A stretch of 64,000 nucleotides of DNA, taken from assembly GCF_001713395.1 (NCBI RefSeq), contig NZ_CP016450.1:1116001-1180000 (forward strand), given 5' to 3'. This DNA comes from Sinorhizobium sp. RAC02. Lineage in GTDB: Bacteria; Pseudomonadota; Alphaproteobacteria; Rhizobiales; Rhizobiaceae. The first letter of the stretch is position 1; each line of letters opens with the position of its first letter. Below are positions 33,109 through 56,638 of the stretch, piece after piece. The notes under the pieces were generated by a model that had not been told where the DNA came from, did not search any database, and saw only the letters and a list, made by a program, of their open reading frames with translations. The position numbers were made by a program, and so were the translations under genes.

Positions 33109-34566
33109 ATGGCAGCAGAAGGTATGGTGCAGTCCGGCAAATCATCGCCGGCAATCCGTCAATTGGAGGGGGCGCTCACCCGCATCGGGGTCACCGGTGC
33201 GCATAAGCAGATCATCGTGCTGGTGCTGATCGGGTGCCTGTTCGACAGTTTCGAGCAGAATACGATCGGCGTGTCCGGGCCGCTCCTGAAGGAGCATTGG
33301 GGTCTGACCGGCACGGATATCGGCTTCCTAAATACGATCACGTTCGGCAGTGCGGCCATCGGGCGCCTGCTTTCGGGCATCCTCGGCGATCGCTACGGCC
33401 GCCGCGTCATGCTGACCTTCAATCTCTTGCTGTTTTCGCTCGGCTCGGCAGCCTGCGCGCTGGCACCGGACTTCATGTTCCTCTGCATCGCCCGGGCAAT
33501 CGTCGGCTTTGGCGTCGGCGGGGAAATCTCGACAGCCGTCACCATGCTCTCGGAATTCTGCTCGCCGAAATTCCGAGGAACGGCGGCCGGCCTCGTCAAT
33601 GTGGGCGCGGGCGGTTTTGGCAACTTCCTGGCACCCGTCTACGGACTGATGATCTTCAGCATCTTCCCGGGTGAGGATAGCTGGCGCTGGCTGTTTGCCT
33701 CGCTTGCACTGCCGGCCCTGCTGGTCGTGTTCTACCGCCGCTACGTGCCGGAAACGCCACGGTTCCTTGCATCTCAAGGGCGCATCGACGAGGCGAACAA
33801 GGTGCTCTCGGTGCTGGAATCCGGATCACTCCGGCCGAACAACCTCGTGGTGAAGGAATATCTGACGAAGGACAAGGAGAGCGAAGCGCCAGCCGCCAAG
33901 GGTGCCTGGCAGGAGCTTTTCCGCGCGCCGTTCCTTGGCCGTATCATTCCGGTATCGATCGCCATCCTCATGAGCTATGGCGCACAGCTTTCCGTGCTCA
34001 CGCTGATGCCGATCATCTTCATCGAGATGGGCTACACGCTGCAGGGCAGCCTGCTCTACAGCATGATCATCCAGAGCGGCAGCGTTCTCGGCGCCATTGC
34101 GGCCTCGATGTTCGGCTACTACTTCCCGCGCAAACGGGTGCTGACGACCGGTGCAATCTGCGCCTGCCTTGCCGCACTCGCCATCATGTATCTCGGCACC
34201 ACCATCTACCTGGTGCTGTTCTTCGGCGCGCTCTTCCAATTCTTCGTGCTTCTGCTGAACACCTCGATCTGGATCTATGCGCCGGAACTCTTCCCGACCC
34301 GCATCCGCGCCTTCGGCGTCGCCTTCATCCTGGCGACGGGTTCGGCTGCCGGTTCCTTCGTGCCGACCATTTCGGGCGCCCTCTTCGATAGCTACGGCAT
34401 GGGCGGCGTCTTCGGTCTCGCGGCTGCCATGTATGCGGTCTTCGCCGTCTGCATCCGCCTCGGGCCGGAAACCTACGGCATGTCGATGGAAGACCTCACG
34501 CAGCGTGCGGATGTCATCGGCAAGAGCGACGACATCGCAGTCGAACCCCTCAAGGCAGGAGCATAA
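33109..34566 (+). CDS. MFS transporter, sugar/aromatic-acid proton symporter type
   Basis: A 485-residue 12-helix major facilitator. The signature between helices 2 and 3 is GRLLSGILGDRYGRRVML, and helix 4 begins CIARAIVGFGVGGEISTAV. The second half repeats the pattern (SMFGYYFPRKRVLTTG) and ends in the sugar-porter-like WIYAPELFPTRIRAFGVA. The substrate cannot be deduced; relatives carry organic and aromatic acids. It starts at ATG 33109 after GGAGGAGGAG. The racemase-like gene begins five bases after its stop. Control by the divergent RpiR protein is likely. Confidence 0.9.
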   Translation: MAAEGMVQSGKSSPAIRQLEGALTRIGVTGAHKQIIVLVLIGCLFDSFEQNTIGVSGPLLKEHWGLTGTDIGFLNTITFGSAAIGRLLSGILGDRYGRRVMLTFNLLLFSLGSAACALAPDFMFLCIARAIVGFGVGGEISTAVTMLSEFCSPKFRGTAAGLVNVGAGGFGNFLAPVYGLMIFSIFPGEDSWRWLFASLALPALLVVFYRRYVPETPRFLASQGRIDEANKVLSVLESGSLRPNNLVVKEYLTKDKESEAPAAKGAWQELFRAPFLGRIIPVSIAILMSYGAQLSVLTLMPIIFIEMGYTLQGSLLYSMIIQSGSVLGAIAASMFGYYFPRKRVLTTGAICACLAALAIMYLGTTIYLVLFFGALFQFFVLLLNTSIWIYAPELFPTRIRAFGVAFILATGSAAGSFVPTISGALFDSYGMGGVFGLAAAMYAVFAVCIRLGPETYGMSMEDLTQRADVIGKSDDIAVEPLKAGA

Positions 34567-34571
34567 GCGTA

Positions 34572-35249
34572 ATGACCCCGCACATACTGTTGATCAATCC
34601 CAACAGTTCCGAGACCACCAGCGACATGATGCAGGCCATCGCGCTGAGGTCCGCAGCCGAGAGGCTGGACGTGAAGGCCGTGACGGCCAGCCGCAGCCCG
34701 GCCATGATCGTCACGCCCCAGCAGTTGACAGCCTCGGCCGCGCAGGTGGTCGAGTTGGGCACCGCGCACGGTCGGGATTGTGCGGGGATCATCGTCAGCG
34801 CCTTCGGCGATCCCGGCCTTGCCGAGCTTCGCCGCAAGGTCACTGTTCCCGTGGTCGGCATCTGCGAGGCCTCGATGATCGAGGCCTCGCAGGGCGGCAA
34901 GAAGTTCGGCGTCGCAACCTCGACGCCGGATCTCATCGAAGCCATCGACCAGCGCGCCCATGACCTCGGCCTTGCCCATCTCTATACGGGCGTGCGCTGT
35001 ACGCAGGGCGATCCGATCGCACTTGCATCCAATACCGGCCTTCTGACTGGAGCGCTGGCGGGCGCGGTGCGCGCCTGTATCGAGCTGGACGGTGCGGAAG
35101 CCGTGATCATCGGCGGCGGCCCGCTCGGCCAGGCCGCCGATCAGCTGCGGCAGATTTTCGATACACCTGTGATCGGGCCGATCCCTTCGGCTGTGGAGCG
35201 GGTCATCAACCTGATAGGACAGGACACGAGCGTGCCGCAGACGGTGTAG
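34572..35249 (+). CDS. Asp/Glu/hydantoin racemase superfamily protein lacking both canonical cysteines
   Basis: A 225-residue two-domain racemase-superfamily protein (HILLINPNSSETTSDMMQAI, then FGDPGLAEL and VVGICEASMIEAS). Hydantoin and allantoin racemases use two cysteines, one just before the FGDPG-like motif and one in a late GC(A/G)GM segment. Here these positions read IVSAFGDPG and VIIGGGPLGQ, so both are replaced. Four other cysteines are present elsewhere. The protein may be a non-racemising member, such as a cis-trans isomerase or a lyase-like enzyme. It is translated with the MFS gene, so it acts on or near the imported substrate. Confidence 0.83.
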   Translation: MTPHILLINPNSSETTSDMMQAIALRSAAERLDVKAVTASRSPAMIVTPQQLTASAAQVVELGTAHGRDCAGIIVSAFGDPGLAELRRKVTVPVVGICEASMIEASQGGKKFGVATSTPDLIEAIDQRAHDLGLAHLYTGVRCTQGDPIALASNTGLLTGALAGAVRACIELDGAEAVIIGGGPLGQAADQLRQIFDTPVIGPIPSAVERVINLIGQDTSVPQTV

Positions 35250-35278
35250 CGCAACCCGGACCTTCGAAAACAAAGGGC

Positions 35279-35306
35279 AGGGCGCTCCGTGAAAACGAGG
35301 CGCCCT
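35279..35306. terminator. Hairpin between convergent racemase-like and LysR genes
   Basis: AGGGCGCTC (35279-35287) can pair with GAGGCGCCCT (35297-35306) with one bulged G. No long T run follows on either strand, so it is at best a weak or Rho-assisted end signal. Confidence 0.35.
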
Positions 35307-36220
35307 CAACTGCGAATGGCGGGTCCCGTCTTCTCGGCAGCCCAGGCAACGAACACAGCCTTCAAATGTTCGGCGGCGGGCGAGAGGCTATGATGACGCC
35401 GTTGCAGCACGGAGACGTCGCGCATAACATGCGGCTCGATGAGATCGACCGTCATCACCCGCACGGCTGAGGCGAGCTGGCTTGAATTTTCCGGCAAGAC
35501 GGCGACCCCCATGCCGGCGGCAATCATGCTGATCGCGGTGGTCGAGAAGCGCACCTCGTATTTCGGCCGGTAGCTCGGCACGACACGGATGAGATTGTGC
35601 TCGACGATGTTGCGCAGCGGATTGGACGCGGCAAGCGTGATGAGGGTTTCGTCCTTCAACTCGGCCCAGCGCACGGATTTTCGCTTGGCGAAGCGGTGAT
35701 CCTCCCGGCAGACGAGCATCAGCTTGTCGCGCAGCAGCGGCGTAGCGGCAATCTCGGGATCGTCTTCCGAAAGCGTGCCGATCGCGATGTCGACCTCGTT
35801 GCGCTTGAGGGCGGGCGTGATCTGCTCCTCCGGCATGTCGCGGATGTTGACGGTGATCTCCGGATACATGCGCAGGAACCGCGCGAGGATCGGCGGAACG
35901 ACGGTGGCGGCGAGCACGATTGCGGCTGCGATCGTCACCTGGCCGCGTTTCAACGAGGCATTGTCGCGCACGTCACCGACGGCCAGCTCCAGGTCCTTCA
36001 GGATCTTTCGCGCCTGCGGCAGGAATTCCTGGCCGACGAGGGTGAGCGAGACCATCCGGGTGTGCCGGTCGAAGAGGCGCACGCCGATCTCCGTTTCCAG
36101 GTCGCGGACGAGGATGCTGACTGCCGACTGGGTGAGGTGGAGGTGCCGGGCGGCGAGATTGAACTGGCCAAGCTCGGCCACCGCGATGAAGGCCCTGAGT
36201 TGCCGCAGGGTTATGTTCAT
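35306..36220 (-). CDS. LysR-family transcriptional regulator (first of a paralogous pair)
   Basis: A 304-residue LysR protein: winged helix at 1-60 (MNITLRQLRAFIAVAELGQF...LTQSAVSILVRDLE) and a two-lobe effector domain. The N-terminus is strikingly like that of the second LysR gene at 44111-45007; both share GQF, QSAVS, LFDRHTR and MxITLxQLRAF. It lies 59 bases downstream of the ABC ATPase gene on the same strand, so it may be the last gene of the ABC operon. ATG 36220 is preceded by AGGAGGGC. Confidence 0.92.
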   Translation of the reverse strand: MNITLRQLRAFIAVAELGQFNLAARHLHLTQSAVSILVRDLETEIGVRLFDRHTRMVSLTLVGQEFLPQARKILKDLELAVGDVRDNASLKRGQVTIAAAIVLAATVVPPILARFLRMYPEITVNIRDMPEEQITPALKRNEVDIAIGTLSEDDPEIAATPLLRDKLMLVCREDHRFAKRKSVRWAELKDETLITLAASNPLRNIVEHNLIRVVPSYRPKYEVRFSTTAISMIAAGMGVAVLPENSSQLASAVRVMTVDLIEPHVMRDVSVLQRRHHSLSPAAEHLKAVFVAWAAEKTGPAIRS

Positions 36221-36279
36221 GGGCGTACTGCCCTCCTGTTTATGCGACCGCCATCAAACCCTGCCGCAGCCATCCCTGT

Positions 36280-37812: not shown

Positions 37813-37817
37813 ATCCG

Positions 37818-38750
37818 TTACCTCATCTCGTAGGGCTGGCCGAGCTTGCTCGGTGCTGCACCCTTGCCGCGGACCACGACGAGCGTGATGATCGTCATGA
37901 TGTAGGGAAGCGCCTGCAGAACCTGGTAGGGCACGACGATGGATGCCTGGGCCTGAAGCATGAGCTGCAAGGCATAGAACAGGCCGAAGAGCAGCGAGAC
38001 GAAGAAGGCGCCGATCGGCGACCACCTTGCGAACACGACCACGGCCAGCACGATGAAGCCGCGACCGGAGGTGATGCCTTCGACGAACTGGTTGGAATGG
38101 CCGAGTGTCAGGAACGCGCCGCCGAGCCCCGCAAGCCCCGTGCCGACCAGGACTGCGCCGTAGCGGTAGGCCGCGACATTGCGGCCGGCGACATCGACGG
38201 CTTTCGGATGTTCGCCGACGGCGCGCAGCGTCAGGCCGAACGAGGTGCGGTAGAGAATGAGGGTGGCGAGGACGGCGACGAGGATCGTCGAATAGACGAT
38301 AAGGTTCTGCTGGAAAAAAGCCTCGCCGAGAAAGGGCAGGTCACTGAGCCAGGGAATACGGACTGGCTGGGCGATCTCGATGCCTTTGCCGGTCGAGACA
38401 TAGTAGGTGCGGAAGAGGAAGGCCGTGAGGCCCATGCCGAGCAGGTTGAGTGCTGCGCCAACCACGATCTGGTCCGCCTTGATGGTGATCGTGAAGAAGG
38501 CGAAGATGAGGCCGAACAGCATACCACCCGCGACCCCGGTGAGAAGACCGAGAAGAACGCTGCCGGTGGCAAAGGCCGCCGCGAAGCCGCAGAAGGCGCC
38601 GACAAGCATGGTGCCTTCCAGGCCGATATTGAGCACGCCCGCCCGCTCGGAAAAGACCTCACCGATCGAGGCGAAGATGAGGGGTGTCGCAAGCCTCCAG
38701 GCGGCGCCGGCGAGCGTCGCGAGGAAGGTGAGGAACATCATGTCGTCCAT
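37818..38750 (-). CDS. ABC transporter permease, nucleoside/BMP type (second permease)
   Basis: A 310-residue integral membrane protein of the BPD_transp_2 family, about eight to ten helices. The typical motif IGEVFSERAGVLNIGLEGTM is near residue 30, and the EAA-like cytoplasmic loop LRAVGEHPKAVDVAGRNV near residue 188. It pairs with the larger permease encoded upstream (38828-39922) to form the channel. The ATPase gene follows after five bases. Confidence 0.94.
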   Translation of the reverse strand: MDDMMFLTFLATLAGAAWRLATPLIFASIGEVFSERAGVLNIGLEGTMLVGAFCGFAAAFATGSVLLGLLTGVAGGMLFGLIFAFFTITIKADQIVVGAALNLLGMGLTAFLFRTYYVSTGKGIEIAQPVRIPWLSDLPFLGEAFFQQNLIVYSTILVAVLATLILYRTSFGLTLRAVGEHPKAVDVAGRNVAAYRYGAVLVGTGLAGLGGAFLTLGHSNQFVEGITSGRGFIVLAVVVFARWSPIGAFFVSLLFGLFYALQLMLQAQASIVVPYQVLQALPYIMTIITLVVVRGKGAAPSKLGQPYEMR

Positions 38751-38827: not shown

Positions 38828-39922
38828 TCAGGCCACGATCCTTATGATGTCGCGCAACTTGGCAAAGGCGACGACAGACAGGATGACGATTCCCTGGATG
38901 ACCAGCACGAGGACCTGAGGCACCTGCGAGGAGATCTGGAGGACTTCCGAGCCGGAGCGGAGCGTCGCAAACAGCCCGCCCGAGAGGATTGCTGCCAGCG
39001 GATTGTTGCTGGCCAGCAGCGCCACGGCGATGCCCTCGAAGCCGTAGCCGGGCGAAATGTTCTGGTAGAGCCGATGCGTGACACCGGCGACCTCGAAGGC
39101 GCCTGCAAGGCCAGCCATCGCGCCGCTGATACAGATGGCGATCATGATGTTGCGGCCGACATTCATGCCGGCATAGCGCGCCGCATGCGGGTTGAGGCCG
39201 ACGACGCGCAGGGCAAATCCGCGGCTGCTTCTTTGCAGGAAGATGTAGAGCGCGACCGCCAGCACCACGGCGACGAGAATGCCGATATGGAGACGCATGT
39301 CGGAGACGATGCGCGGCGTCCAGGCCTCGCGCACAAGGCGGGCGGACTGCGGATAGGCAGCACTGGCATCTTTCATTGGCCCGGTGACGAGGTAGCTCGT
39401 CAGGATGATGGCGATGTAGTTGAGCATGATCGTCGTGACGATTTCGCTCGCCTGGAAGCGCACCTTGAGATAACCGGCAATCCCGGCCCAGGCCGCACCC
39501 GCGACGGCGCCGGCCAGCATGACGAGTGGCGCATGTACCCAGACAGAAAGGCCATCGATGCTGGTGCCGACCAGCGTTGCGGCGATCGCCCCGACATAGA
39601 GCTGGCCCTCCGCGCCGATGTTCCAGATGCTGCATCGGAAGGCGACGCAGAGCCCCGCGCCGATCAGGATGAGCGGGGTTGCCTTCAGCAGGATTTCGCC
39701 GACCGAGCGCATGTCCTGGAACGACCCGAAAATCATCACCGTGACGACGTCGCTTCCATTGAAGCCGTTGAGCCAGAGCAGGACGGCGCCGCAGGCAAGG
39801 GCGACGAGGACTGCGGCGAGGGGTGTCACGAGGCTGATCGCGGCCTGCGAGAGCGTGCGGTAGAGGGCGTTGACGGTCTGAGGATACACGTTCTCACGCA
39901 CTCCCTGGTTTATCTGTGCCAT
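38828..39922 (-). CDS. ABC transporter permease, nucleoside/BMP type (first permease)
   Basis: A 364-residue permease of the BPD_transp_2 family with a short cytoplasmic N-terminus and about ten helices. CSIWNIGAEGQLYVGAIAAT is the conserved substrate-channel motif, and FALRVVGLNPHAARYAGMNV is the ATPase-coupling loop. It is preceded by the BMP binding-protein gene, with a strong hairpin in the 74-base gap, and followed after 77 bases by the partner permease. Confidence 0.94.
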   Translation of the reverse strand: MAQINQGVRENVYPQTVNALYRTLSQAAISLVTPLAAVLVALACGAVLLWLNGFNGSDVVTVMIFGSFQDMRSVGEILLKATPLILIGAGLCVAFRCSIWNIGAEGQLYVGAIAATLVGTSIDGLSVWVHAPLVMLAGAVAGAAWAGIAGYLKVRFQASEIVTTIMLNYIAIILTSYLVTGPMKDASAAYPQSARLVREAWTPRIVSDMRLHIGILVAVVLAVALYIFLQRSSRGFALRVVGLNPHAARYAGMNVGRNIMIAICISGAMAGLAGAFEVAGVTHRLYQNISPGYGFEGIAVALLASNNPLAAILSGGLFATLRSGSEVLQISSQVPQVLVLVIQGIVILSVVAFAKLRDIIRIVA

Positions 39923-40974: not shown

Positions 40975-41013
40975 TGATCTTCCTCCCATTTGATAAGTTC
41001 CCATAAACCGCGC

Positions 41014-47487: not shown

Positions 47488-47966
47488 AACGGATCGTCGA
47501 ACTCACCATTAATGGCGAGGCGCGCGACATGGCGGTGGAGACCTGCTGCTCGCTGCTCGACGCGCTGCGCGACGATGTCGGCCTTACCGGCACCAAGAAG
47601 GGGTGCGACGTCGGCGATTGCGGGGCCTGCACCGTGCTGGTCGATGGCGAGCCGGTCAATGCCTGCCTGATGCTCGCCGTCGAGGCTGAAGGCCGCTCGG
47701 TCGAGACCGTCGAGGGGCTCCAGCCCAGCGTCGATACGCTGCATCCGTTGCAGGATGCCTTCATGCAGCACGGTGCCTCGCAATGCGGCTTCTGCACGCC
47801 GGGCATCCTGATGATGGCCAAGAAGCTGCTTGCCGACAATCCGCGCCCGACCGATGAAGACATTCGCTTCGGCCTCAGCGGCAACATCTGCCGCTGCACC
47901 GGCTACACCAAGATTTTCGACGCGATCAAATCCGCCGCGCGTGAGATGGAGGCTGCAAGATCATGA
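47484..47966 (+). CDS. Molybdenum hydroxylase, [2Fe-2S] subunit
   Basis: A 160-residue small subunit with both clusters complete: the plant-ferredoxin type by Cys41, Cys46, Cys49 and Cys61 (GCDVGDCGACT...NAC), and the second by Cys101, Cys104, Cys136 and Cys138 (CGFC...CRC). It moves electrons from the molybdenum site to FAD. ATGA overlaps on both sides (47484-47487 and 47963-47966) show strict coupling with the other subunits. Confidence 0.96.
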   Translation: MKRIVELTINGEARDMAVETCCSLLDALRDDVGLTGTKKGCDVGDCGACTVLVDGEPVNACLMLAVEAEGRSVETVEGLQPSVDTLHPLQDAFMQHGASQCGFCTPGILMMAKKLLADNPRPTDEDIRFGLSGNICRCTGYTKIFDAIKSAAREMEAARS

Positions 47967-50269
47967 ACATCAACACCCCTATCGAAGAGCGCGAATTCAA
48001 GATCGTCGGCAAGAGCGTGCGCCGCGACGACGTGCTGGAAAAGGTGACGGGCGAGGCCGAATATACCGGTGACGTCAAGCTTGCCGGCATGCTGTACGGC
48101 AAGACCAAGCGCGCGACCGTCGCCCATGCGCGTATCAAGAGCATCGATGTCAGCAAGGCGCTCGCCTATCCGGGCGTCAAGGCGGTGCTGACGCACGAAA
48201 ATGTGCCGCGCGTGCTGCATTACGGCTCGCCGCATCCGCGCTCGGCTTCCTGCACCAAGGACCAGTATATCCTTGACGACAAGGTGCGATTCTGGGGAGA
48301 GGGCGTCGCCGTCGTTGCTGCCATCAGCGAGGAGATCGCCGACGAGGCGCTCGACCTGATCGACGTCGAATACGAAGCCTTGCCGGCCGTCTTCGAGCCG
48401 GAAGACGCGGCTCAGCCGGGTGCCCCGCTGATCCACGAAGTCGGGCCGGGCGGCAACCTGGTGCTCGATCCGGTACGCGTCAATCGCGGGAACGTCGAGG
48501 CCGGTTTTGCCGAGGCGGATTTCGTGCTTGAAGGCACGTTTTCCGGCGGTCGTCCGCATCCTGCCTATATGGAGCCGAATGTCTGTATCGCGGACTGGGA
48601 CGGCTCGAACAAGCTGACCTTCTGGACCTCCACACAGTCCTCCTTCATGGTGCGCGGCATCCTTGCCGAAGTGCTCGGCCTGCCGCTCACCAAGGTGCGC
48701 GTGCTCGTCGACCATATGGGCGGCGGCTTCGGTGCCAAGCAGGACTGTTTCCAGCACGAATTCCTGTGTGCGCTGCTTGCGAAAGAGACGCGTCGTCCGG
48801 TGAAGATGGAATTCACCCGTCACGAGACCTTCATTGCGGGCCGTGCGCGCCACCCCTGCAAGATCTGGCTGAAGCAAGGCTTCAAGAACGACGGCACCCT
48901 CGTCGCCCGTGACATGAAGCTGGTCTACGATTCGGGCGCCTACGGCTCGCACGGCCCGGGCGTGACGATCGTCGGCACCACCGCCGCCACCTCGCTCTAT
49001 CGCTGCGAGAACGTGCGGCTGGAAGGGCGCTGCGTCTACACCAATACGCCGATCAACGGTGCTTTCCGCGGCTATGGCGTGGTGCAGAGCTATTATGCGC
49101 TCGACATCCAGATGGACGAGGCGGCCGAACGGCTGGGCATGGACCCGGCGGAGCTGAAGCTGAAGAACGTCGTGCGGGAAGGCGACATCGCGCCGTCAGG
49201 TCATCCGATCCTCGGCCACGGGCTGGAAATCTGCCTTCAGCACGGCATCGACGTGCTCGACTGGAAGAAGCTGCGCAACCGCGACCGCACGCCGGATCCC
49301 AAGCAGCCGCACATCCGCACCGGCTGGGGCGTCGGTTGTGAAATGCACGGTTCTTCCGCCTATCCCGGCATCAAGGAACAGGGCAACGCCACCGTGAAGG
49401 TCAATGAGGACGGCACGGTGACGCTGCTGACGGGGGCGGCCGGCCTCGGCACCGGCGCGCACACTGCGCTGGCACAGATCGTTGCCGAAGAACTCGGCGT
49501 GCGCTTCGAGGATGTCGGCACGATCCATGGCGATACGGACGTGGTGCCATGGGATATCGGCGCCTTTGCCAGCCACACGACCTATCTCGTCGGCACCGCC
49601 GCCAAGATGGCTGCCACCAAGGTGCGTACGTCCGTTCTCGAACGGGCTGCAATGAAGGTTCAGGTTAAGGCCGACGAACTTGACCTTTCCGAGGGAAAAA
49701 TCTTCGTCAAGGCTGAGCCTGGTCGCTTCATGACTGTCGCCGAGGCGATGGGTCCTTCGCGTGGCATTCCCGCCGCCAACATCGTCGCGAACGGTACCTA
49801 CGAGCCGACGAAATCCTATTCCTTCGCCGCGCATTTTACCGAGGTGCATGTCGATACGGAAACCGGCATCGTCGAGGTCAAGCGCGTCATACCGGTGCAC
49901 GATATCGGCCGGGTCATCCACCCGATCGCGGCGCAGGGCCAGATCGAGGGCGGCATCCAGCAGGGTATCGGTCACACGCTGACCGAGGACTACGTCATCG
50001 ACAAGAAGACCGGCCGGTCGCTCAATGCCGGCCTCGTCGACTACAAGATGCCGCTCTCCATGGACATGCCGGACATCGAGACGATCATCCTCGAAGCTGC
50101 ACCCGATCCGGGCGGCCCCTGGGGCGCCAAGGGTGTCGGCGAGGACCCGATCATCGCCATCGGCCCGGCCATCGCCAACGCCATCCACGACGCCATCGGC
50201 GTCCGTTTCCACCACTATCCGATCACTCCGGAAGACATCCTGAAAGCACTGAGGGAGAAGGGCGCATGA
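47963..50269 (+). CDS. Molybdenum hydroxylase, molybdopterin (catalytic) subunit
   Basis: A 768-residue large subunit of the xanthine-oxidase family. The N-terminal aldehyde-oxidase a/b hammerhead is at about 25-140. Molybdenum-site motifs are MGGGFGAKQD, NGAFRGYG and the catalytic glutamate in GAKGVGEDPI near the C-terminus. It lacks the AYRCSFR loop with the Cu-binding Cys of form I CO dehydrogenase, so it is a hydroxylase of another substrate. Such enzymes add water-derived oxygen to electron-poor heterocycles or aldehydes. The partner XdhC-like factor is encoded at the end of the cluster. Confidence 0.93.
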   Translation: MNINTPIEEREFKIVGKSVRRDDVLEKVTGEAEYTGDVKLAGMLYGKTKRATVAHARIKSIDVSKALAYPGVKAVLTHENVPRVLHYGSPHPRSASCTKDQYILDDKVRFWGEGVAVVAAISEEIADEALDLIDVEYEALPAVFEPEDAAQPGAPLIHEVGPGGNLVLDPVRVNRGNVEAGFAEADFVLEGTFSGGRPHPAYMEPNVCIADWDGSNKLTFWTSTQSSFMVRGILAEVLGLPLTKVRVLVDHMGGGFGAKQDCFQHEFLCALLAKETRRPVKMEFTRHETFIAGRARHPCKIWLKQGFKNDGTLVARDMKLVYDSGAYGSHGPGVTIVGTTAATSLYRCENVRLEGRCVYTNTPINGAFRGYGVVQSYYALDIQMDEAAERLGMDPAELKLKNVVREGDIAPSGHPILGHGLEICLQHGIDVLDWKKLRNRDRTPDPKQPHIRTGWGVGCEMHGSSAYPGIKEQGNATVKVNEDGTVTLLTGAAGLGTGAHTALAQIVAEELGVRFEDVGTIHGDTDVVPWDIGAFASHTTYLVGTAAKMAATKVRTSVLERAAMKVQVKADELDLSEGKIFVKAEPGRFMTVAEAMGPSRGIPAANIVANGTYEPTKSYSFAAHFTEVHVDTETGIVEVKRVIPVHDIGRVIHPIAAQGQIEGGIQQGIGHTLTEDYVIDKKTGRSLNAGLVDYKMPLSMDMPDIETIILEAAPDPGGPWGAKGVGEDPIIAIGPAIANAIHDAIGVRFHHYPITPEDILKALREKGA

Positions 50270-51399
50270 ACATGCATATCGAACCGGCCAACAAGAAGCT
50301 CCCGATCACGATCCTCACCGGCTTCCTGGGATCGGGAAAGACGACGCTGCTCAACTACATCCTCACCGAACGGCACGGCCACCGCATCGCGGTGATCGAG
50401 AACGAGTTCGGCGAAGTGGATGTCGACAGCGACCTGGTGCTCGCCTCCGACGAGGAAATCTTCCAGATGCAGAACGGCTGCATCTGCTGCTTCGTCGACG
50501 TGCGCAACGACCTCATCGACGTGATGAAAAAGCTGCTCAGCCACAAGGACAAGTTCGACCACATCATCGTCGAGACGTCGGGCCTGGCTGACCCAACCCC
50601 CGTCGCCACCGCCTTTTTCGTCGACCGCAGCGTCGCTGACGAGGTCGATCTTGACGCTATCGTCACGCTTGTCGACGCCATGCATATCGACCAGCACCTC
50701 TACGATCCGGTGCTCGACGGCAGCGACAACCAGGCGGTCAACCAGATCGTCGCGGCCGACCGCATTCTCGTCAACAAGATCGACCTCGCGTCAGAAGAAG
50801 CCCTCGGCTCGCTCGAAACGTCGCTGCGCAAGCTCAACCAGACGGCGCCGATCCTGCGTTCCACCTATGGCAAGGTGGATCTGTCCAACATCCTCGGCGT
50901 CAACGGCTTCCGGCCGTCCTATGTGCGCGAGCGGGCAGAAATCCTGGATATCGACATGGATAATGACCACGACACGCATGGCCATCATCACCATGAATGC
51001 CACGACGCGGCCTGTGACCACCCGGACCATGACCATGCGCACCATCACGATCATGACCACGGCCACCCGCCCACATCCGCCCTGCGCCCGCACAGCCACG
51101 ATGCGACGGTAAAATCCCACTCCTTCGTCTATCCGCATTCCTTCGACGGCGACAAGCTTGCCACCTTCCTGAAGGACTATCTCGGCGAGCGCGGCGACGA
51201 CATCTTCCGCACCAAGGGGATCGTCTCTGTGGCCAATGACGAGCGCTTCTTCGTGCTCCAGGCGGTGCACAAGCTGGTCGATTTTCGCCCGGACCACGCC
51301 TGGGGCGAGGACACGCGGAAGTCGAAGTTCGTCTTCATCGGCCGCAATCTCGACCGTGACGGCATAGACCGGAACTTGCGCGCATGCCTTGCGGCCTAG
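50266..51399 (+). CDS. CobW/COG0523-family GTPase (metallochaperone)
   Basis: A 377-residue G3E GTPase. Walker A is TGFLGSGKTTLLN (19-30), the metal-binding CxCC motif is Cys72-Ile-Cys74-Cys75 (NGCICCF), and the NKID G4 motif follows. A His/Asp-rich stretch at about residues 231-280 (DHDTHGHHHHECHD and DHAHHHDHDHGH) separates it from the C-terminal CobW domain. This points to zinc or another transition metal. The ATGA overlap with the hydroxylase gene ties it to this cluster; clients could be the amidohydrolases encoded next. It is followed by a terminator at 51446-51481. Confidence 0.92.
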   Translation: MNMHIEPANKKLPITILTGFLGSGKTTLLNYILTERHGHRIAVIENEFGEVDVDSDLVLASDEEIFQMQNGCICCFVDVRNDLIDVMKKLLSHKDKFDHIIVETSGLADPTPVATAFFVDRSVADEVDLDAIVTLVDAMHIDQHLYDPVLDGSDNQAVNQIVAADRILVNKIDLASEEALGSLETSLRKLNQTAPILRSTYGKVDLSNILGVNGFRPSYVRERAEILDIDMDNDHDTHGHHHHECHDAACDHPDHDHAHHHDHDHGHPPTSALRPHSHDATVKSHSFVYPHSFDGDKLATFLKDYLGERGDDIFRTKGIVSVANDERFFVLQAVHKLVDFRPDHAWGEDTRKSKFVFIGRNLDRDGIDRNLRACLAA

Positions 51400-51799: not shown

Positions 51800-52723
51800 A
51801 TGATCATTGACCTAAGCTGCTACCCCACCGATCTGGTGGACCTGGCTTGGCGCCACGACGGACCGCCGTTCACCGGCGACAAGCTTTTGAAGATGATGGA
51901 CGGCCCGTACTACGTGAACGGCAAGCCGCGCCGCATCGACAAGGCTTTCATCCAGCCGCCGCAGGGCAACACCATCTACACCCATGAAGTCATGGACCTG
52001 GAAGGCAAGGCCGCCATCCGTCAGTACATGGCCTATACGGAAAAGATGGTGACGGAGCATCCCGACCGTTTCCTCGGCTGCTTCGTCTACAACCCGCGCT
52101 ACGGCACGCAGAACGGCGCCGAAGAAATCGAACGCTACGCCAAGGAATTCGATTTCAAGATGGTGCAGCTGCAGGCGAACATGCACGCCTACCGCCCAGA
52201 CCGCGCGCTCGACTGGCTGCGTCCGGCCCTGAAGAAGTGCGCCGAGCTCGGCCTGATGGTGAAGGTGCACACCGGTGACGGTCCGTACTCGATCCCGACG
52301 GAATTCTACCCGATCATCCGCGAGTTCCCGGAAGTGAACTTCATCCTTGCGCATTTCGGCGTGCAGACCGGTGGCGTCTACGTGTTCGAGCCGATGCAGA
52401 TGGCCCTGGACACGCCGAGCGTCTACGTCGAATCCGGCTGGTGCCTCCAGTCGCGCATTGTCGAATTCGCCAAGGTGCTGCCCAAGCACAAGATCCTCTT
52501 CGGCTCCGATACGCCGCCGAACGAGCCGGGCATGTGGATCAATCTTCTCGAAGTCCTCTGCCATGAGCCGCCGCAGGGCCTCAACCTCGATGAGGATACG
52601 CTGGAGGATTACCTCGGCAACAACACCGCCCGCATGATCGGTCTCGAGCCGACCAAGCCGCCGGCAAGCGTCGAAGAAGCCGAGGCGTATCTGCGCCAGC
52701 ACGGCGTCTCGCTCGCCGCGTAA
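51800..52723 (+). CDS. Amidohydrolase-2 family protein A, lacking the HxH metal ligands
   Basis: A 307-residue TIM-barrel protein of the ACMSD/gamma-resorcylate decarboxylase-like amidohydrolase-2 family, paralogous along its whole length to the next gene. The later motifs are kept: VKVHTGDGP (His157), ILAHFGVQTGG (His185) and LFGSDTPPNEPGMW (Asp237). The N-terminal metal motif is not: residues 4-9 read DLSCYP where the paralogue has DTHLHP, and QLQANMH replaces KLHANMH. It is therefore probably a non-catalytic or altered partner subunit. ATG 51800 has AGGAGAA upstream. Confidence 0.9.
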   Translation: MIIDLSCYPTDLVDLAWRHDGPPFTGDKLLKMMDGPYYVNGKPRRIDKAFIQPPQGNTIYTHEVMDLEGKAAIRQYMAYTEKMVTEHPDRFLGCFVYNPRYGTQNGAEEIERYAKEFDFKMVQLQANMHAYRPDRALDWLRPALKKCAELGLMVKVHTGDGPYSIPTEFYPIIREFPEVNFILAHFGVQTGGVYVFEPMQMALDTPSVYVESGWCLQSRIVEFAKVLPKHKILFGSDTPPNEPGMWINLLEVLCHEPPQGLNLDEDTLEDYLGNNTARMIGLEPTKPPASVEEAEAYLRQHGVSLAA

Positions 52724-52740
52724 ACTGAACGGAGTGAACA

Positions 52741-53685
52741 ATGATTATCGATACCCATCTTCACCCGACGAACCTCGTGGACGAGGCATGGCGTCATACG
52801 GGTTCGCCCTTCACCGGCGAGCGCATGCTGAAGCTGATGGACGGCCCCTATATGATCAATGGCAAGCCGCGCCGGATCGACATGGGCTTCATCCAGCCGC
52901 CGCCGGGTAACACCGGCTACCGCGACGGCAACCGCAAGGGCCGCGAGGGCATTCGCGACTACATGGCCTATTGCGCCGAGCTGTGCCAGACCTATCCGGA
53001 CCGCTTCATCGGCAACTTCAACTACAACCCGCGCTGGGGCCCTGAAAACGGCGCGGCGGAGCTGGAATTCCACGTCAAGGAGTACGGCTTCAAGATGCTG
53101 AAGCTGCATGCCAACATGCACGGCTACCGCCCCGACCGTGCACTCGACTGGCTGCGCCCGGCGATGAAGAAGTGCGCCGAACTCGGCGTGGTCGTTTTGA
53201 TCCACACCGGCGACGGTCCGTACACGATCCCGACGATGTTCTACCCGATCATCCGCGAGTTCCCGATGGTCAACTTCATCATCGGCCATTTCGGCATCCA
53301 GACGGGCGGCAACTACTCGTTCGAATCCTTCTGGATGGCGATGGATACGCCGAACGTCTACTGCGAATCCGGCTGGTGCTTCCAGTCGCGCATCGTGGAG
53401 TTCGCCCAGCAGCTGCCGAAGAACAAGATCGTCTTCGGCACGGACAGCCCACCGAACGATCCGGGCATGTGGCTGCGCGAATTGGAAGTGCTCTGCAAGG
53501 ACCCGCCGCACGGCATCAACCTCTCCGAGGACGATCTGGAAGGCTATCTCGGCAACAACATCGCCAAGCTCGTCGGCATCGACCCGTCACCACCACCGCG
53601 CGACGTGAAGGACGCCCAGGCGCGCCTGACGGATTCCTACGCCGGCGTCGACCGCGCCACCGGCAGGCATCTGGAATTCGCCTGA
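52741..53685 (+). CDS. Amidohydrolase-2 family protein B (metal site intact)
   Basis: A 314-residue TIM-barrel metal-dependent enzyme. The HxH motif is His6-Leu-His8 (IIDTHLHPTN); further likely ligands are His155 (VVLIHTGDG), His183 (IIGHFGIQTG) and Asp235 (FGTDSPPND). Family members are non-oxidative decarboxylases (ACMSD, isoorotate, gamma-resorcylate) or hydrolases. It starts 17 bases after its paralogue A, so the pair is made from one transcript. It is likely the active member of a heteromeric enzyme in the cluster. Confidence 0.92.
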   Translation: MIIDTHLHPTNLVDEAWRHTGSPFTGERMLKLMDGPYMINGKPRRIDMGFIQPPPGNTGYRDGNRKGREGIRDYMAYCAELCQTYPDRFIGNFNYNPRWGPENGAAELEFHVKEYGFKMLKLHANMHGYRPDRALDWLRPAMKKCAELGVVVLIHTGDGPYTIPTMFYPIIREFPMVNFIIGHFGIQTGGNYSFESFWMAMDTPNVYCESGWCFQSRIVEFAQQLPKNKIVFGTDSPPNDPGMWLRELEVLCKDPPHGINLSEDDLEGYLGNNIAKLVGIDPSPPPRDVKDAQARLTDSYAGVDRATGRHLEFA

Positions 53686-53695
53686 TTTAACAATG

Positions 53696-53717
53696 GCGGC
53701 GCCTTTCGGGGCGCCGC
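53696..53717 (+). other. Intercistronic hairpin before ubiD
   Basis: Perfect 8-bp stem GCGGCGCC (53696-53703) with GGCGCCGC (53710-53717), loop TTTCGG, no T run. It may adjust mRNA stability or the ratio of the amidohydrolases to UbiD rather than terminate. Confidence 0.55.
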
Positions 53718-53745
53718 TATCTACCCGCAGCATCGAGGCCGAGAC

Positions 53746-55119
53746 ATGACCCAGTACCACAAGCAAGACGTCCGCCGCTTCCTGGCCGACTACAAGGCCG
53801 ACCATCCCGAGGACGTTATCACCATCGACCGGCCGGTCTCGGACGATCAGGACGCCACGGCGCTGATCTGGAACCTTGCGGAGAAGGGCCAGCATCCGAT
53901 GCTGCATCTCAAGGATGTCAGCGGCATCGACAGTCCGGTGATCTGCAACATCTTTGCCTCGCGTGATCGTATTGCGCGGCTGCTCGGCTCGACGGCGGAA
54001 AACCTGCATGAGGCCTATCAGGCCCGCTCCAACCGGCCATTCACGCCGGAGATTCTGGAAAGCGGCCCGATCACCGAGGAAATCATCTCCGGCGACGCTG
54101 TCGATCTTCACGCGCTACCGATGCTGAAGCACTTCGATACCGACCGAGCGAAATACATCACCAGCGGCATCATCATCGGCGAGCACCCCGAAACCGGGGC
54201 CGGCAATCTCAGCTACCACCGCGCGATGATCCACTCGAAGAATTCGCTGGCCACCTCGCTGCATTCGCGCGGCCATCTCTGGCGCCTGATGAACATGGCG
54301 AAGGAGAAGGGCGAGCCGATGCCGGTCGCCATGGTGATCGGCGGCCATCCGCTGTTCATGATCGCTGCCTCCGCCCGCCTAGCCTTCGGCGAGGACGAGC
54401 GGGATGTGGCGGGTGGCCTGATGGGCGAGCCCTTGCAGGTCGTGCGCACGCCAAAATATGGCATTCGCGTTCCCGCCCATGCCGAGATCGTGCTCGAGGG
54501 CGTGCTGGATCCCGAGGCCCATGTGGAGGAGGGGCCGTTCGGTGAATTCACTGGCTATTCCTCCGACCGCTCGACCAACAACCTCTTCACCGTCGAGACG
54601 ATCATGCGTCGGCGCGATGCCATCCTCGTCTCCGTGGCGGGTGGCAATTCGGCCGAACACCTGAACCTCGGCCGCGTGCCGCGCGAAGCGGAGGTCGTGG
54701 AGAAGCTGAAGGCGCGCTTCCCCTCCATCACCGCCGTGCACTACCCGTCCTCCGGCACCCATTTCCACGCCTACATCGCGATGAACCAAACGCGCGAGGG
54801 CGAGGCCCGTCAGATCATGCTCGGCCTGCTCGGCTGGGACCAGTATCTGAAGACCGTCGTCGTGGTGGATGCCGACGTGGACATTACCCGCGACAGCGAG
54901 GTGCTCTGGGCGCTCGCCACCCACTTCCAGCCGCATAAGGATGTCGTCATCATCGAGGGCCTGCCGGGGAATGCGCTCGACCCGTCGGCAAGCGGTATCG
55001 GCACGACCTCTCGCATGGGCCTCGATGCCACGCGCGGGCCGAATTTCCACGGCGTGCGCGCCCGCATCAGCGATGAGGCTTCGGCCCGCGCTGTAGCCCT
55101 TCTCAAAAGCGTGGGATAG
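53746..55119 (+). CDS. UbiD-family prenylated-FMN-dependent decarboxylase
   Basis: A 457-residue (de)carboxylase of the UbiD family. The catalytic set is visible: Arg159 in LSYHRAM and the two glutamates Glu262 and Glu267 in EEGPFGEFTGY, matching the Arg-Glu-Glu triad of Fdc1. Metal and prFMN contacts are in NLSYHR and the preceding segment. UbiD enzymes decarboxylate aromatic, heteroaromatic or alpha,beta-unsaturated acids. Being in a catabolic cluster rather than with ubiquinone genes, it is unlikely to be the ubiquinone UbiD. The dedicated UbiX gene follows after three bases. Confidence 0.93.
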   Translation: MTQYHKQDVRRFLADYKADHPEDVITIDRPVSDDQDATALIWNLAEKGQHPMLHLKDVSGIDSPVICNIFASRDRIARLLGSTAENLHEAYQARSNRPFTPEILESGPITEEIISGDAVDLHALPMLKHFDTDRAKYITSGIIIGEHPETGAGNLSYHRAMIHSKNSLATSLHSRGHLWRLMNMAKEKGEPMPVAMVIGGHPLFMIAASARLAFGEDERDVAGGLMGEPLQVVRTPKYGIRVPAHAEIVLEGVLDPEAHVEEGPFGEFTGYSSDRSTNNLFTVETIMRRRDAILVSVAGGNSAEHLNLGRVPREAEVVEKLKARFPSITAVHYPSSGTHFHAYIAMNQTREGEARQIMLGLLGWDQYLKTVVVVDADVDITRDSEVLWALATHFQPHKDVVIIEGLPGNALDPSASGIGTTSRMGLDATRGPNFHGVRARISDEASARAVALLKSVG

Positions 55120-55122
55120 GTC

Positions 55123-55710
55123 ATGACGACGCGGCCAAGACGCATGATTGTCGGCATTTCAGGTGCTTCCGGCGTGGTCTACGGCAAGCGCATCCTCGAA
55201 GTGCTGCGCGACCTGGAGATCGAGACGCATCTCATCATGTCTCGCGCCGCCTGCATCACGCTCGCGGCCGAGGCGGATTTTACCAAGCAGGACCTTGAAG
55301 CGCTGGCGACGACCACGCATTCCAACAAGGATATCGGCGCGGTCTGTTCCTCCGGCTCCTACAAGACTCTCGGCATGATCGTTGCCCCCTGTTCGGTGAA
55401 GACCATGGCGGAAATCGCCACCGGCACGACCGACAACCTGCTGTCGCGCGCCGCCGACGTGGTGCTGAAGGAGCGCCGCCGTCTGGTGCTGATGCTGCGC
55501 GAAACGCCGCTCCATCTCGGCCACATCCGCAACATGGCGCAGGTGACGGAAATGGGCGGCATAATCTACCCGCCCGTGCCGGCCTTCTACGCCAAGCCGC
55601 AAAGCCTCGCCGACATGGTCGACCACACCGTCGGTCGCGTGCTCGACCTCTTTGATCTGGACCCCGGCATCGTGCGCCGCTGGCAAGGTACGCAAGACGG
55701 GGTGGCGTGA
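55123..55710 (+). CDS. ubiX: UbiX-family flavin prenyltransferase
   Basis: Makes the prenylated FMN cofactor for UbiD from FMN and dimethylallyl phosphate; 195 residues. Conserved features are GISGASGVVYG, CSSGSYKTLGMIVAPCSVKT, NLLSRAADVVLKERRRLVL, RETPLH and PPVPAFY. It lies directly behind ubiD and is presumably its dedicated cofactor enzyme. The XdhC gene begins one base after its stop. Confidence 0.93.
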   Translation: MTTRPRRMIVGISGASGVVYGKRILEVLRDLEIETHLIMSRAACITLAAEADFTKQDLEALATTTHSNKDIGAVCSSGSYKTLGMIVAPCSVKTMAEIATGTTDNLLSRAADVVLKERRRLVLMLRETPLHLGHIRNMAQVTEMGGIIYPPVPAFYAKPQSLADMVDHTVGRVLDLFDLDPGIVRRWQGTQDGVA

Positions 55711-55711
55711 C

Positions 55712-56638
55712 ATGGCCGGCCGCATCGCCCCCGAACCGGAAACGCTGGAGCCTCGCGCCGCCTTCCTTTCGGACGATGCGATCGAGATCCTTGCCTTCGC
55801 CGCGCAATCCATGACCGATGGCCATGCAGTGGCCCTCGTCACGCTCGTCGAAATCCGTGGCGGCGCGGCCCGCGCGATCGGCGCGCAGATGGCGGTGTGT
55901 GCAGACGGCCGCTATTGCGGTTTCGTTTCCGGTGGTTGTACGGAGGCAGCTGTTGCCGCCGAAGCCGTGATTGCCCTTCAAAAAGGCTTGGACCGCAATC
56001 TTTGCCTCGGCGAGGGATCACCTTTCTTCGATATCGTCCTGCCGTGCGGCGGCGGCATCACGCTCGCCATTCACGTTCTTCGTGACACCGCCGTACTGCA
56101 TCGTGCGCTGACGGCTCTGCAGCGCCGTATCCCCGTGTGCCTGCGCTATCATGCTGGCGCCCAGGCACTTGATCTGGAGGCGGGTGAGGGGAAGGCCGGT
56201 TGGGATGGGGATGCTTTCGTCCGCGCCTACCGGCCAAGGGAAAGGCTTGTGCTTGGCGGCACCGGAATGGAAGCCAGTGCGGTGGCGCAGATTGCGTCCG
56301 CGTCCGGCTACGAGGTCTTGCTGCTAGAACGAGGCCAGGTGCCAACAGACGACCAATTGGATCGCGATACCGCCGTGGCACTTCTGTTCCACGACGTCGA
56401 CCGGGAACTGGTATTGCTCGAACGCGTTCTGGCATCGAGGGCTTTCTACATCGGCGCACTCGGAAGCCGCCGCACGCACGGGACGCGCTGCGCAGCCTTG
56501 CGGCAGCGTGGTTACTGTGACGCCGACCTCGCCCGGATAAAGGCCCCCATCGGAATCTTCGACAAGGCGAGGGATGCACGCACGCTCGCCCTCTCGATCG
56601 TCGCCGATATTGCACAGGCGCGGTTGCACGGTCTCTGA
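55712..56638 (+). CDS. XdhC/CoxI-family molybdenum-cofactor maturation protein
   Basis: A 308-residue XdhC-like protein that binds molybdenum cofactor, protects its sulfurated form and inserts it into xanthine-dehydrogenase-family enzymes. The N-terminal XdhC/CoxI domain has VSGGCTEAAVAAEAV. The C-terminal Rossmann domain has RLVLGGTGMEASAVAQI and YIGALGSRRTHGTRCAALR. Its presence ties the operon end to the molybdenum hydroxylase at 46.6-50.3 kb. It starts at ATG 55712 and is followed by an intrinsic terminator. Confidence 0.92.
   Translation: MAGRIAPEPETLEPRAAFLSDDAIEILAFAAQSMTDGHAVALVTLVEIRGGAARAIGAQMAVCADGRYCGFVSGGCTEAAVAAEAVIALQKGLDRNLCLGEGSPFFDIVLPCGGGITLAIHVLRDTAVLHRALTALQRRIPVCLRYHAGAQALDLEAGEGKAGWDGDAFVRAYRPRERLVLGGTGMEASAVAQIASASGYEVLLLERGQVPTDDQLDRDTAVALLFHDVDRELVLLERVLASRAFYIGALGSRRTHGTRCAALRQRGYCDADLARIKAPIGIFDKARDARTLALSIVADIAQARLHGL

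What the first reader, a model, noticed from the sequence alone, without database searches (positions are those of the whole stretch)
33109..56638. Candidate undescribed heterocycle-degradation cluster combining Mo hydroxylase, UbiD/UbiX and two amidohydrolase types
Seen: NCS2 nucleobase permease, three-subunit Mo hydroxylase, CobW, two amidohydrolase-2 paralogues, UbiD, UbiX and XdhC on one strand; divergently, class II aldolase, CodA-like amidohydrolase and a BMP-type ABC importer, with two related LysR genes and an adjacent RpiR-MFS-racemase-like unit. Known families: NCS2 and BMP systems import nucleobases/nucleosides; Mo hydroxylases hydroxylate electron-poor rings; UbiD decarboxylates (hetero)aromatic acids; CodA-like enzymes deaminate rings. 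Inferred: uptake, then ring hydroxylation, decarboxylation and hydrolytic opening of a carboxylated N-heterocycle. There is no CoA ligase, so it is not the furoate-type HmfABC pathway. I recognise no described pathway with this set.
Basis: partly seen in the sequence, partly recalled or inferred. Interest (0 to 1): 0.85.

Follow-up and report, generated by a model that had tools for sequence, protein, structure and literature searches.

The report
Candidate bacterial pteridine-to-xanthine degradation cluster
A gene cluster shared by many soil bacteria probably breaks down pteridines (insect-pigment and folate relatives) to the ordinary purine xanthine, and may hold the missing genes of a route described in the 1960s that, as far as I recall, has never been tied to genes.

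Summary
The conserved unit is smaller: window 35306-56638 (LysR, BMP-type ABC importer, CodA-like deaminase, aldolase, LysR | NCS2, three-subunit Mo hydroxylase, CobW, amidohydrolase pair AHA/AHB, UbiD, UbiX, XdhC). The RpiR-MFS-racemase unit does not belong. In 80 loci found by AHA/AHB, all hold both paralogues and 79 hold UbiD. AHB keeps a metal motif (DTHLHP); AHA has always lost it (SCYP). In betaproteobacteria the CodA slot usually holds another deaminase, F6, closer to 2PAJ (isoxanthopterin deaminase, recalled) than to 8-oxoguanine deaminase. In 284 genomes F6 (68% identity or more) occurs in 57, all with AHB; 60 have AHB. The host also has a canonical xanthine dehydrogenase. Best model, inferred: import, deamination, Mo hydroxylation to tetraoxypteridine, AHA/AHB contraction to xanthine-8-carboxylate, UbiD decarboxylation to xanthine. 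The formulas balance with each enzyme class used once. This would give genes to a 1960s pathway (EC 5.5.1.3, recalled as orphan). Not proven: F6 is a sister subfamily of 2PAJ, not its orthologue, and a xanthinase-like imidazole-carboxylate route remains possible.

The parts
35306..36220 (-). LysR regulator 1, next to the ABC importer
   Evidence: PF00126 + PF03466; same position in L186, L187, L183, L086
36280..37809 (-). BMP-type ABC importer, ATPase
   Evidence: NF047930 465.8 bits, below cut-off 670
37818..38750 (-). BMP-type ABC importer, permease 1
   Evidence: NF047928 235.2 bits, below cut-off 465
38828..39922 (-). BMP-type ABC importer, permease 2
   Evidence: NF047929 180.8 bits, below cut-off 400
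39997..41004 (-). BMP-type substrate-binding protein
   Evidence: PF02608 156 bits; NF047927 99.2 bits, below cut-off 400
41618..42913 (-). CodA-like deaminase (proposed pteridine deaminase)
   Evidence: Amidohydro_3 103.9 bits; nearest PDB 6nbo/4r7w; H-x-D-E motif in 16 of 16
43134..43934 (-). class II aldolase-family protein, peripheral, role unknown
   Evidence: PRK06486 455.8 bits, over cut-off 269; 13 of 80 loci
44111..45007 (-). LysR regulator 2, divergent from the NCS2 operon
   Evidence: PF00126 + PF03466
45170..46561 (+). NCS2 permease of the xanthine-permease subfamily
   Evidence: TIGR03173 517.6 bits, cut-off 414.15; signature QNVGLLQITG
46624..47487 (+). Mo hydroxylase, FAD subunit
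   Evidence: NF043083 225.1 bits, below cut-off 310
47484..47966 (+). Mo hydroxylase, 2Fe-2S subunit
   Evidence: NF043084 192.6 bits, below cut-off 217
47963..50269 (+). Mo hydroxylase, Mo subunit
   Evidence: NF043082 660.1 bits, below cut-off 780; G[VI]GE motif in 37 of 37 rows
50266..51399 (+). CobW-type GTPase, proposed metal chaperone for AHB
   Evidence: PF02492 188.1 + PF07683 75.4 bits; CobW in 74 of 80 loci
51800..52723 (+). AHA: Amidohydro_2 paralogue that lost the HxH metal motif (SCYP)
   Evidence: 131.1 bits PF04909; SCYP in 86 of 86 rows
52741..53685 (+). AHB: Amidohydro_2 with intact DTHLHP, H155, H183, D235; proposed lactam hydrolase / ring contraction
   Evidence: 163.6 bits PF04909; motif in 86 of 86 rows; model pLDDT 80.2, ACMSD/decarboxylase-type barrel
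53746..55119 (+). UbiD decarboxylase, proposed to act on xanthine-8-carboxylate
   Evidence: TIGR00148 304.4 bits; nearest PDB 6h6x, recalled as the furandicarboxylate decarboxylase HmfF; EGP[FY]GE in 85 of 85 rows
55123..55710 (+). UbiX flavin prenyltransferase (makes the UbiD cofactor)
   Evidence: TIGR00421 242.7 bits
55712..56638 (+). XdhC-type Mo-cofactor maturation protein
   Evidence: PF13478 81.8 and PF02625 64.3 bits

Best explanation
An aerobic pteridine-to-xanthine pathway. Step 1: the BMP ABC system and/or the NCS2 permease imports an oxidised pteridine (isoxanthopterin, leucopterin or xanthopterin type, or its lumazine form). Step 2: the CodA-like deaminase (F6 in most betaproteobacteria seen) removes the 2-amino group, giving an oxolumazine. 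Step 3: the Mo hydroxylase, matured by XdhC, hydroxylates the pyrazine ring to tetraoxypteridine. Step 4: AHB hydrolyses one pyrazine lactam, and AHB plus the metal-less AHA close the imidazole ring with loss of water, giving xanthine-8-carboxylate, a net isomerisation (EC 5.5.1.3, recalled). Step 5: UbiD, with prFMN from UbiX, decarboxylates it to xanthine. Step 6: the host's ordinary xanthine dehydrogenase/urate genes finish the job. CobW supplies metal. Shown: gene content, conservation, co-occurrence, motif states, a canonical xanthine dehydrogenase and HIU hydrolase elsewhere in the host. Inferred: every substrate and every step. The 1960s chemistry (McNutt, Alcaligenes faecalis) is recalled, not read here.
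For: (1) In 80 loci chosen by AHA/AHB, both paralogues are in 80, UbiD in 79 (the exception, L031, ends at a contig end just after AHB), UbiX 74, CobW 74, NCS2 64. (2) F6 and the CodA-like deaminase are never in the same locus (35 and 17 of 80; 28 show neither within the flank). F6 follows NCS2 in beta loci as CodA does in Brucella and Paracoccus loci L046 and L045, so a deamination step seems conserved while the enzyme is swapped. (3) F6's nearest solved structure is 2PAJ (467.6 bits against 309.8 for 8-oxoguanine deaminase), recalled as isoxanthopterin deaminase; F6 carries 2PAJ's APTT (37 of 37) where the two 8-oxoguanine-type chains have APCS, and HHHL[FS]Q (37 of 37). A held review says enzymes of this family deaminate isoxanthopterin and pterin-6-carboxylate (PMC5270733, passages). 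(4) In 284 genomes: F6 (68% identity or more) 57, AHB 60, both 57, F6 alone 0; 53 pairs within 17.2 kb; in G1041 they are unlinked. (5) NCS2 is over the xanthine-permease cut-off in the window and in both beta homologues scanned. (6) The host has canonical XDH (1361.7 bits) 1.5 kb from HIU hydrolase. (7) Formulas close from isoxanthopterin to xanthine with one deamination, one hydroxylation, one isomerisation, one decarboxylation.
Against: F6 is not the 2PAJ orthologue: two tested paralogues, 48-54% identical to F6, are far closer to 2PAJ (718.6 and 889.4 bits), and none of the four such loci fetched has AHA/AHB beside it, so F6's substrate may differ. F6 is absent from the window's cluster type; the CodA-like protein's nearest structures are N-isopropylammelide hydrolase and cytosine deaminase, which do not point to pteridines. 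AHB's fold neighbours are mostly decarboxylases and hydratases (ACMSD, dihydroxybenzoate decarboxylase, LigJ, IDCase), so it could be a second decarboxylase. XDH in 42 of 42 cluster genomes is weak: 135 of 151 in the host's family have it anyway (95 of 385 in the class). The Mo enzyme differs between lineages (three-subunit in 33 loci, two-subunit in 30). NCS2 signatures differ (mainly QNVG or ENVG). 28 of 80 loci show neither deaminase, though many are cut by the 10 kb flank. The aldolase, the Asp/Glu-racemase-like F13 (18 of 80) and the Rhodoplanes N-carbamoylase are unexplained.
Confidence: 0.46

Rival explanations
1. Proteobacterial version of the clostridial xanthinase pathway: xanthine is opened by AHB (AHA) to 4-ureido-5-imidazolecarboxylate, hydrolysed to 4-amino-5-imidazolecarboxylate, decarboxylated by UbiD to 4-aminoimidazole, deaminated by CodA/F6, and the imidazolone oxidised by the Mo hydroxylase.
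For: NCS2 is in the xanthine-permease subfamily. The clostridial route is hydrolytic, then decarboxylative, to glycine (PMC12507026, passages; PMC3519856, passages), and its decarboxylase is prFMN-dependent (Tong 2023 abstract, recalled). UbiD and two amidohydrolases fit.
Against: The host and 42 of 42 cluster genomes searched already have the canonical xanthine dehydrogenase, so a second xanthine route would be redundant. F6 resembles deaminases of 2-amino-4-oxo bicycles, not aminoimidazole. The clostridial enzymes' sequences could not be reached, so no direct comparison was made.
Confidence: 0.15
2. Folate-residue salvage: the deaminase turns pterin-6-carboxylate into lumazine-6-carboxylate, UbiD decarboxylates that to lumazine, the Mo hydroxylase oxidises lumazine, and AHA/AHB open the ring.
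For: Isoxanthopterin-deaminase-type enzymes also accept pterin-6-carboxylate (PMC5270733, passage). Lumazine-6-carboxylate is named as a candidate folate-degradation intermediate (PMC9513972, passages). UbiD on a heteroaromatic carboxylate fits its nearest structure 6h6x (recalled as HmfF).
Against: Leaves the ring-opened product without enzymes in the cluster, whereas the xanthine-8-carboxylate route closes on xanthine. No carboxypeptidase-G-like gene emerged as a recurrent neighbour; an M20-type hydrolase near the Caballeronia NK8 cluster (L084) was scanned as a single case.
Confidence: 0.14
3. Degradation of another bicyclic or monocyclic N-heterocycle (oxidised purine, methylated purine, pyrimidine carboxylate), with AHB and/or AHA acting as metal-dependent decarboxylases like ACMSD or IDCase rather than hydrolases.
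Against: Does not explain the fixed AHA/AHB pair, the F6 motif state or its 57-of-57 co-occurrence with AHB.
Confidence: 0.21

Closest known systems
Tetraoxypteridine/isoxanthopterin degradation in Alcaligenes faecalis (McNutt 1963-64; EC 5.5.1.3) - recalled
   Same: Enzyme classes map one to one: deaminase, hydroxylase, isomerase, decarboxylase, ending in xanthine.
   Different: Known only as activities; no gene assigned as far as I recall. A. faecalis was not examined here.
Anaerobic xanthinase pathway of Clostridia and Bacilli (Tong 2023, cited in PMC12507026)
   Same: Fused-ring N-heterocycle, hydrolases plus a prFMN decarboxylase (recalled abstract).
   Different: Anaerobic, starts from xanthine. 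Whether it uses Amidohydro_2 proteins was not tested.
Hmf furoate/furandicarboxylate pathway (recalled)
   Same: Mo hydroxylase and UbiD/UbiX in one cluster; UbiD's nearest PDB is 6h6x, recalled as HmfF.
   Different: No CoA-ligase family hit here; amidohydrolases, deaminase and NCS2 instead.
Isoxanthopterin deaminase 2PAJ (Hall 2010, recalled) and 8-oxoguanine deaminase
   Same: F6 of the beta clusters shares APTT and HHHLFQ with 2PAJ.
   Different: F6 is a sister subfamily; closer 2PAJ relatives lie elsewhere.
LigW / ACMSD / isoorotate decarboxylase / LigJ (Amidohydro_2)
   Different: 12-22% identity in the 50 rows shown; AHB has a metal-less twin.
XdhABC-type xanthine dehydrogenase
   Same: Nearest NCBIfam models for the FAD, 2Fe-2S and Mo subunits.
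   Different: Below the cut-offs; a canonical XDH is elsewhere in the genome.

Membership tests
UbiD/UbiX prFMN decarboxylase system | UbiD and UbiX families over curated cut-off, conserved EGPFGE motif | tested here: met
   304.4 against 244.85 and 242.7 against 108.9 bits; EGP[FY]GE in 85 of 85 rows
Amidohydro_2 metal-dependent hydrolase (AHB) | PF04909 and HxH ... H ... H ... D | tested here: met
   163.6 bits; DTHLHP in 86 of 86 rows; H155, H183, D235 invariant
Amidohydro_2 metal-dependent hydrolase (AHA) | HxH metal motif | tested here: not met
   S-C-Y instead of H-L-H in 86 of 86 rows; K121Q and H123Q too
Xanthine dehydrogenase (TIGR02965) | score over cut-off 849.5 | tested here: not met
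   cluster Mo subunit 332.4 and 330.8 bits; another locus of the genome 1361.7
XdhA (NF043082) | score over cut-off 780 | tested here: not met
   660.1 bits
NCS2 xanthine-permease subfamily (TIGR03173) | score over cut-off 414.15 | tested here: met
   517.6 bits; 475.9 and 456.4 for two beta homologues
Hmf-type furoyl-CoA pathway | CoA ligase present | tested here: not met
   no CoA-ligase family among the cluster proteins scanned
Isoxanthopterin deaminase (F6 of beta clusters) | orthology to 2PAJ | tested here: not met
   467.6 bits against 718.6 and 889.4 for two paralogues
Isoxanthopterin deaminase (F6 of beta clusters) | substrate-contact motif (Gln, Tyr, two Thr; recalled) | tested here: met
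   HHHL[FS]Q, HHY and APTT in 37 of 37
Pteridine-to-xanthine pathway (EC 5.5.1.3 route) | tetraoxypteridine to xanthine-8-carboxylate to xanthine activity | not testable with these tools
   needs enzyme assay
Clostridial xanthinase pathway | homology of its hydrolases and decarboxylase to this set | not tested
   paper and sequences not held; a Bacillota genome could not be made a search centre

The most novel reading that the evidence does not exclude
AHA/AHB are the missing tetrahydroxypteridine cycloisomerase: a two-paralogue enzyme in which a metal-dependent amidohydrolase and its metal-less twin open one ring and close a smaller one. The neighbouring UbiD is the missing xanthine-8-carboxylate decarboxylase, to my knowledge the first prFMN enzyme acting on an intact purine. 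Together they form a widespread soil pathway returning pteridines to the purine pool.
Probability: 0.4. Interest if true: 0.87.

Novelty: new variant of a known kind. Interest (0 to 1): 0.74.

Why it matters
If right, a long-known but (as recalled) gene-less bacterial pathway gets genes, two orphan reactions become testable with four purified proteins, and UbiD chemistry extends to a purine. It would show how soil and root-nodule bacteria (S. meliloti carries the cluster on pSymB) recover nitrogen from insect pigments and folate debris. If the substrate turns out to be different, there is still a strictly conserved enzyme pair, one partner without its metal motif, in many genera and without a match in the NCBIfam library (0 families for each).

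Tried and rejected
The clostridial xanthinase reading was my first hypothesis; it lost ground when the host proved to have canonical XDH/HIU hydrolase and F6 proved closest to 2PAJ. I first took F6 for a 2PAJ orthologue and corrected this. XDH co-occurrence (42 of 42; 42 of the 80 loci's genomes were given) looked strong until the base rate in the host's family (135 of 151) showed it is weak. I lowered two odds slightly for this. My notebook calls the group searched Actinomycetota after the record title 'Enemella evansiae'; that is wrong, because genomes drawn (such as G259) come up again in the family of the Caballeronia genome G003, so it is the same phylum.

The 80 loci were chosen by AHA/AHB and are the best 80 of 316, so remote contexts are missing and the presence of AHB is by construction. 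The 86-row motif counts are those 80 plus L083, L084, L085, L111, L112 and L113; L113 is the same stretch as L024. Counts of RpiR/MFS/racemase (0 of 80) are uninformative because those genes lie 17-20 kb from AHB, beyond the 10 kb flanks; their exclusion rests on L086, L183/L184, L186 and L187, of which L186 and L187 reach only 2-3 kb past LysR1. For the same reason CodA (17 of 80) and BMP (8 of 80) are lower bounds; CodA is present in the six longer alphaproteobacterial loci read (L083, L085, L086, L183, L186, L187). ORF calling in the loci was by script, so those family counts are approximate. Whole Bacillota genomes were not searched; among plasmids the Bacillota UbiD hits listed are distant (Priestia 25.6%, Ligilactobacillus 27.4%). 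No Alcaligenes name appeared in the 120 proteins listed of 298, but few bear names.

Literature: UbiD + amidohydrolase + xanthine dehydrogenase + purine gave 0 papers; two or more of UbiD, prenylated FMN and xanthine gave 38, of which 25 listed, none on this by title and abstract start; UbiD + pterin gave 2, neither on this by title and abstract start; 'tetrahydroxypteridine cycloisomerase' and 'tetraoxypteridine' gave 0 and 'xanthine-8-carboxyl' gave 1, a human urine metabolomics study by title. Only open papers are held. The AHB fold search cannot tell hydrolase from decarboxylase. The ARAGORN tRNA-Leu at 8465-8558 is probably spurious: Rfam finds nothing over gathering score in the window.

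Full report
OBSERVATION. The window lies at C1:1116001-1180000 of a 6.63 Mb, three-contig genome. The closest named CodA-like protein is from Shinella kummerowiae (96%), and the same-genus genome G800 matches the Shinella sp. WSJ-2 locus L017 in contig length and position, so the host is probably a Shinella. The genome has a second UbiD on C3, the better Pfam match (257.3 against 210.5 bits), so the cluster's UbiD is probably an accessory copy.

BOUNDARIES. In Ensifer adhaerens plasmid p1 (L186), a Shinella zoogloeoides plasmid (L187) and G800 (L183-L185), the same genes occur in the same order from LysR1 through the BMP importer, CodA-like protein, aldolase, LysR2, NCS2, Mo hydroxylase, CobW, AHA, AHB, UbiD and UbiX to XdhC; L187 and G800 have a second, tandem BMP protein. 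S. meliloti pSymB has most of the set in another arrangement, with LysR1 and the importer; no aldolase or XdhC match was seen in the stretches read (L083, L086). None shows RpiR, MFS or racemase beside LysR1, so 33109-35249 is a neighbour, not a member.

CONSERVATION. A scan of genome contigs with an AHA/AHB alignment found 316 relatives; the best 80 loci were kept. In these: AHA 80, AHB 80 (the search key), UbiD 79, UbiX 74, CobW 74, NCS2 64, three-subunit Mo enzyme 33, a different two-subunit Mo enzyme (which I call IorB-like from recall) 30, F6 35, CodA 17 (identity thresholds set per gene in the script). The cluster is patchy: 1 of 385 genomes of the host's class (the host itself); 5 of 151 of its family, each with two matches, AHA and AHB; 3 of 299 drawn from the phylum of G001; 60 of 284 of the family of G003, the genome of Caballeronia locus L037. 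Ninety-one plasmids carry AHB, and 91 carry a UbiD of more than 60% identity, while the other rows listed are at 38% or less; I did not check that they are the same 91.

THE PAIR. AHA and AHB are 63% identical. In 86 rows (85 distinct stretches) AHB always reads DTHLHP and AHA always SCYP at the same place; K121 and H123 are also replaced in AHA, while H155, H183 and D235 are kept in both. AHB is modelled with pLDDT 80 and pTM 0.83 as an amidohydrolase_2 barrel, nearest to CAC3332, ACMSD, dihydroxybenzoate decarboxylase, LigJ and isoorotate decarboxylase. So one partner can hold the usual metal and the other probably cannot, yet both are fixed. A hydrolysis plus dehydrating ring closure, or a catalytic/structural heteromer, would explain this; neither is shown.

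SUBSTRATE CLASS. In most beta and gamma loci the CodA-like slot holds F6, another amidohydrolase-superfamily deaminase with no useful BLASTP similarity to it. F6 is over the PRK12393 cut-off (769.2 against 543 bits) and nearest to 2PAJ. I recall 2PAJ as isoxanthopterin deaminase (Hall 2010); [quoted passage not shown] All 37 F6 proteins compared have APTT and HHHL[FS]Q as 2PAJ does; the two 8-oxoguanine-type chains aligned have APCS. In 284 genomes 161 have some F6-like match at E 1e-90 or better, mostly 8-oxoguanine-deaminase-like at 41-44% identity; F6 proper (68% identity or more) occurs in 57 and every one has AHB. Three have AHB without it: one has an F6 fragment of 78% identity, one a 53% paralogue, one nothing listed (Fisher p 8e-57, which ignores kinship). 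53 pairs lie within 17.2 kb on one contig; G1041 carries F6 with an NCS2 and a Mo enzyme on one contig and AHA/AHB/UbiD/UbiX/CobW on another. Against this, two paralogues at 48-54% identity to F6 proved much closer to 2PAJ, so F6 is a sister family.

MODEL. A 2-amino-4-oxo bicycle is deaminated, hydroxylated by the Mo enzyme, contracted and decarboxylated. The recalled McNutt route (isoxanthopterin, 7-oxylumazine, tetraoxypteridine, xanthine-8-carboxylate, xanthine) uses these classes once each and the formulas balance. Xanthine then meets the host's canonical xanthine dehydrogenase at C1:3173532-3175820 with HIU hydrolase 1.5 kb away. All 42 cluster-bearing genomes given, of the 80, have that dehydrogenase, but so do 135 of 151 in the host's family and 95 of 385 in its class, so this is only consistent.

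RIVALS AND KNOWN SYSTEMS. The xanthinase pathway (PMC12507026, passages; Tong 2023 recalled) is the nearest described use of a prFMN decarboxylase in purine breakdown that I know; it could not be compared by sequence. Folate debris (PMC9513972, passages) is a second rival. The insect-pteridine review (PMC11121863, passages) describes isoxanthopterin, xanthopterin and leucopterin as insect pteridines, a plausible soil source. For S. meliloti one passage lists SMb20132, a probable dehydrogenase (EC 1.17.1.4), in a table of a PhaR study with a value of -1.44 whose meaning I did not check (PMC12542648); I take it by position to be the Mo subunit, unverified.

VERDICT. A real, widely shared and, as far as the searches here show, uncharacterised catabolic cluster; substrate class probably pteridine; mechanism plausible but untested.

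Noticed in passing
32104-35249: RpiR regulator, MFS transporter and Asp/Glu (hydantoin) racemase-like gene form a separate unit beside the cluster.
   Followed up: partly
56793-58409 (-): Serralysin-like M10 metalloprotease with RTX repeats next to the cluster.
   Followed up: no
8465-8558 (-): ARAGORN tRNA-Leu(aag) call not supported by Rfam; probably spurious.
   Followed up: partly
L187:6760-8773; L183:12022-14052: Some relatives carry two tandem BMP binding proteins with the same ABC importer.
   Followed up: no
L068:14213-14986 and 18 of 80 loci: Asp/Glu-racemase/arylmalonate-decarboxylase-like protein F13 recurs beside these clusters; role unknown.
   Followed up: partly
L061:3039-4298: A Rhodoplanes locus carries an N-carbamoyl amidohydrolase-like gene; the three Rhodoplanes loci have a UbiD of only about 40% identity beside AHA/AHB.
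   Followed up: no
L024 / L113 (genome G001): A record titled Enemella evansiae (an actinobacterial name) has the gene layout of Mameliella locus L020; its genome is grouped in the same phylum as the Caballeronia genome G003 (shared genomes), so the title is probably wrong.
   Followed up: partly
L181, L182 (genome G1041): F6 sits with its own NCS2 and two-subunit Mo enzyme on one contig, AHA/AHB/UbiD/UbiX/CobW/F13 on another with a second NCS2 and Mo enzyme: the pathway split in two modules.
   Followed up: partly
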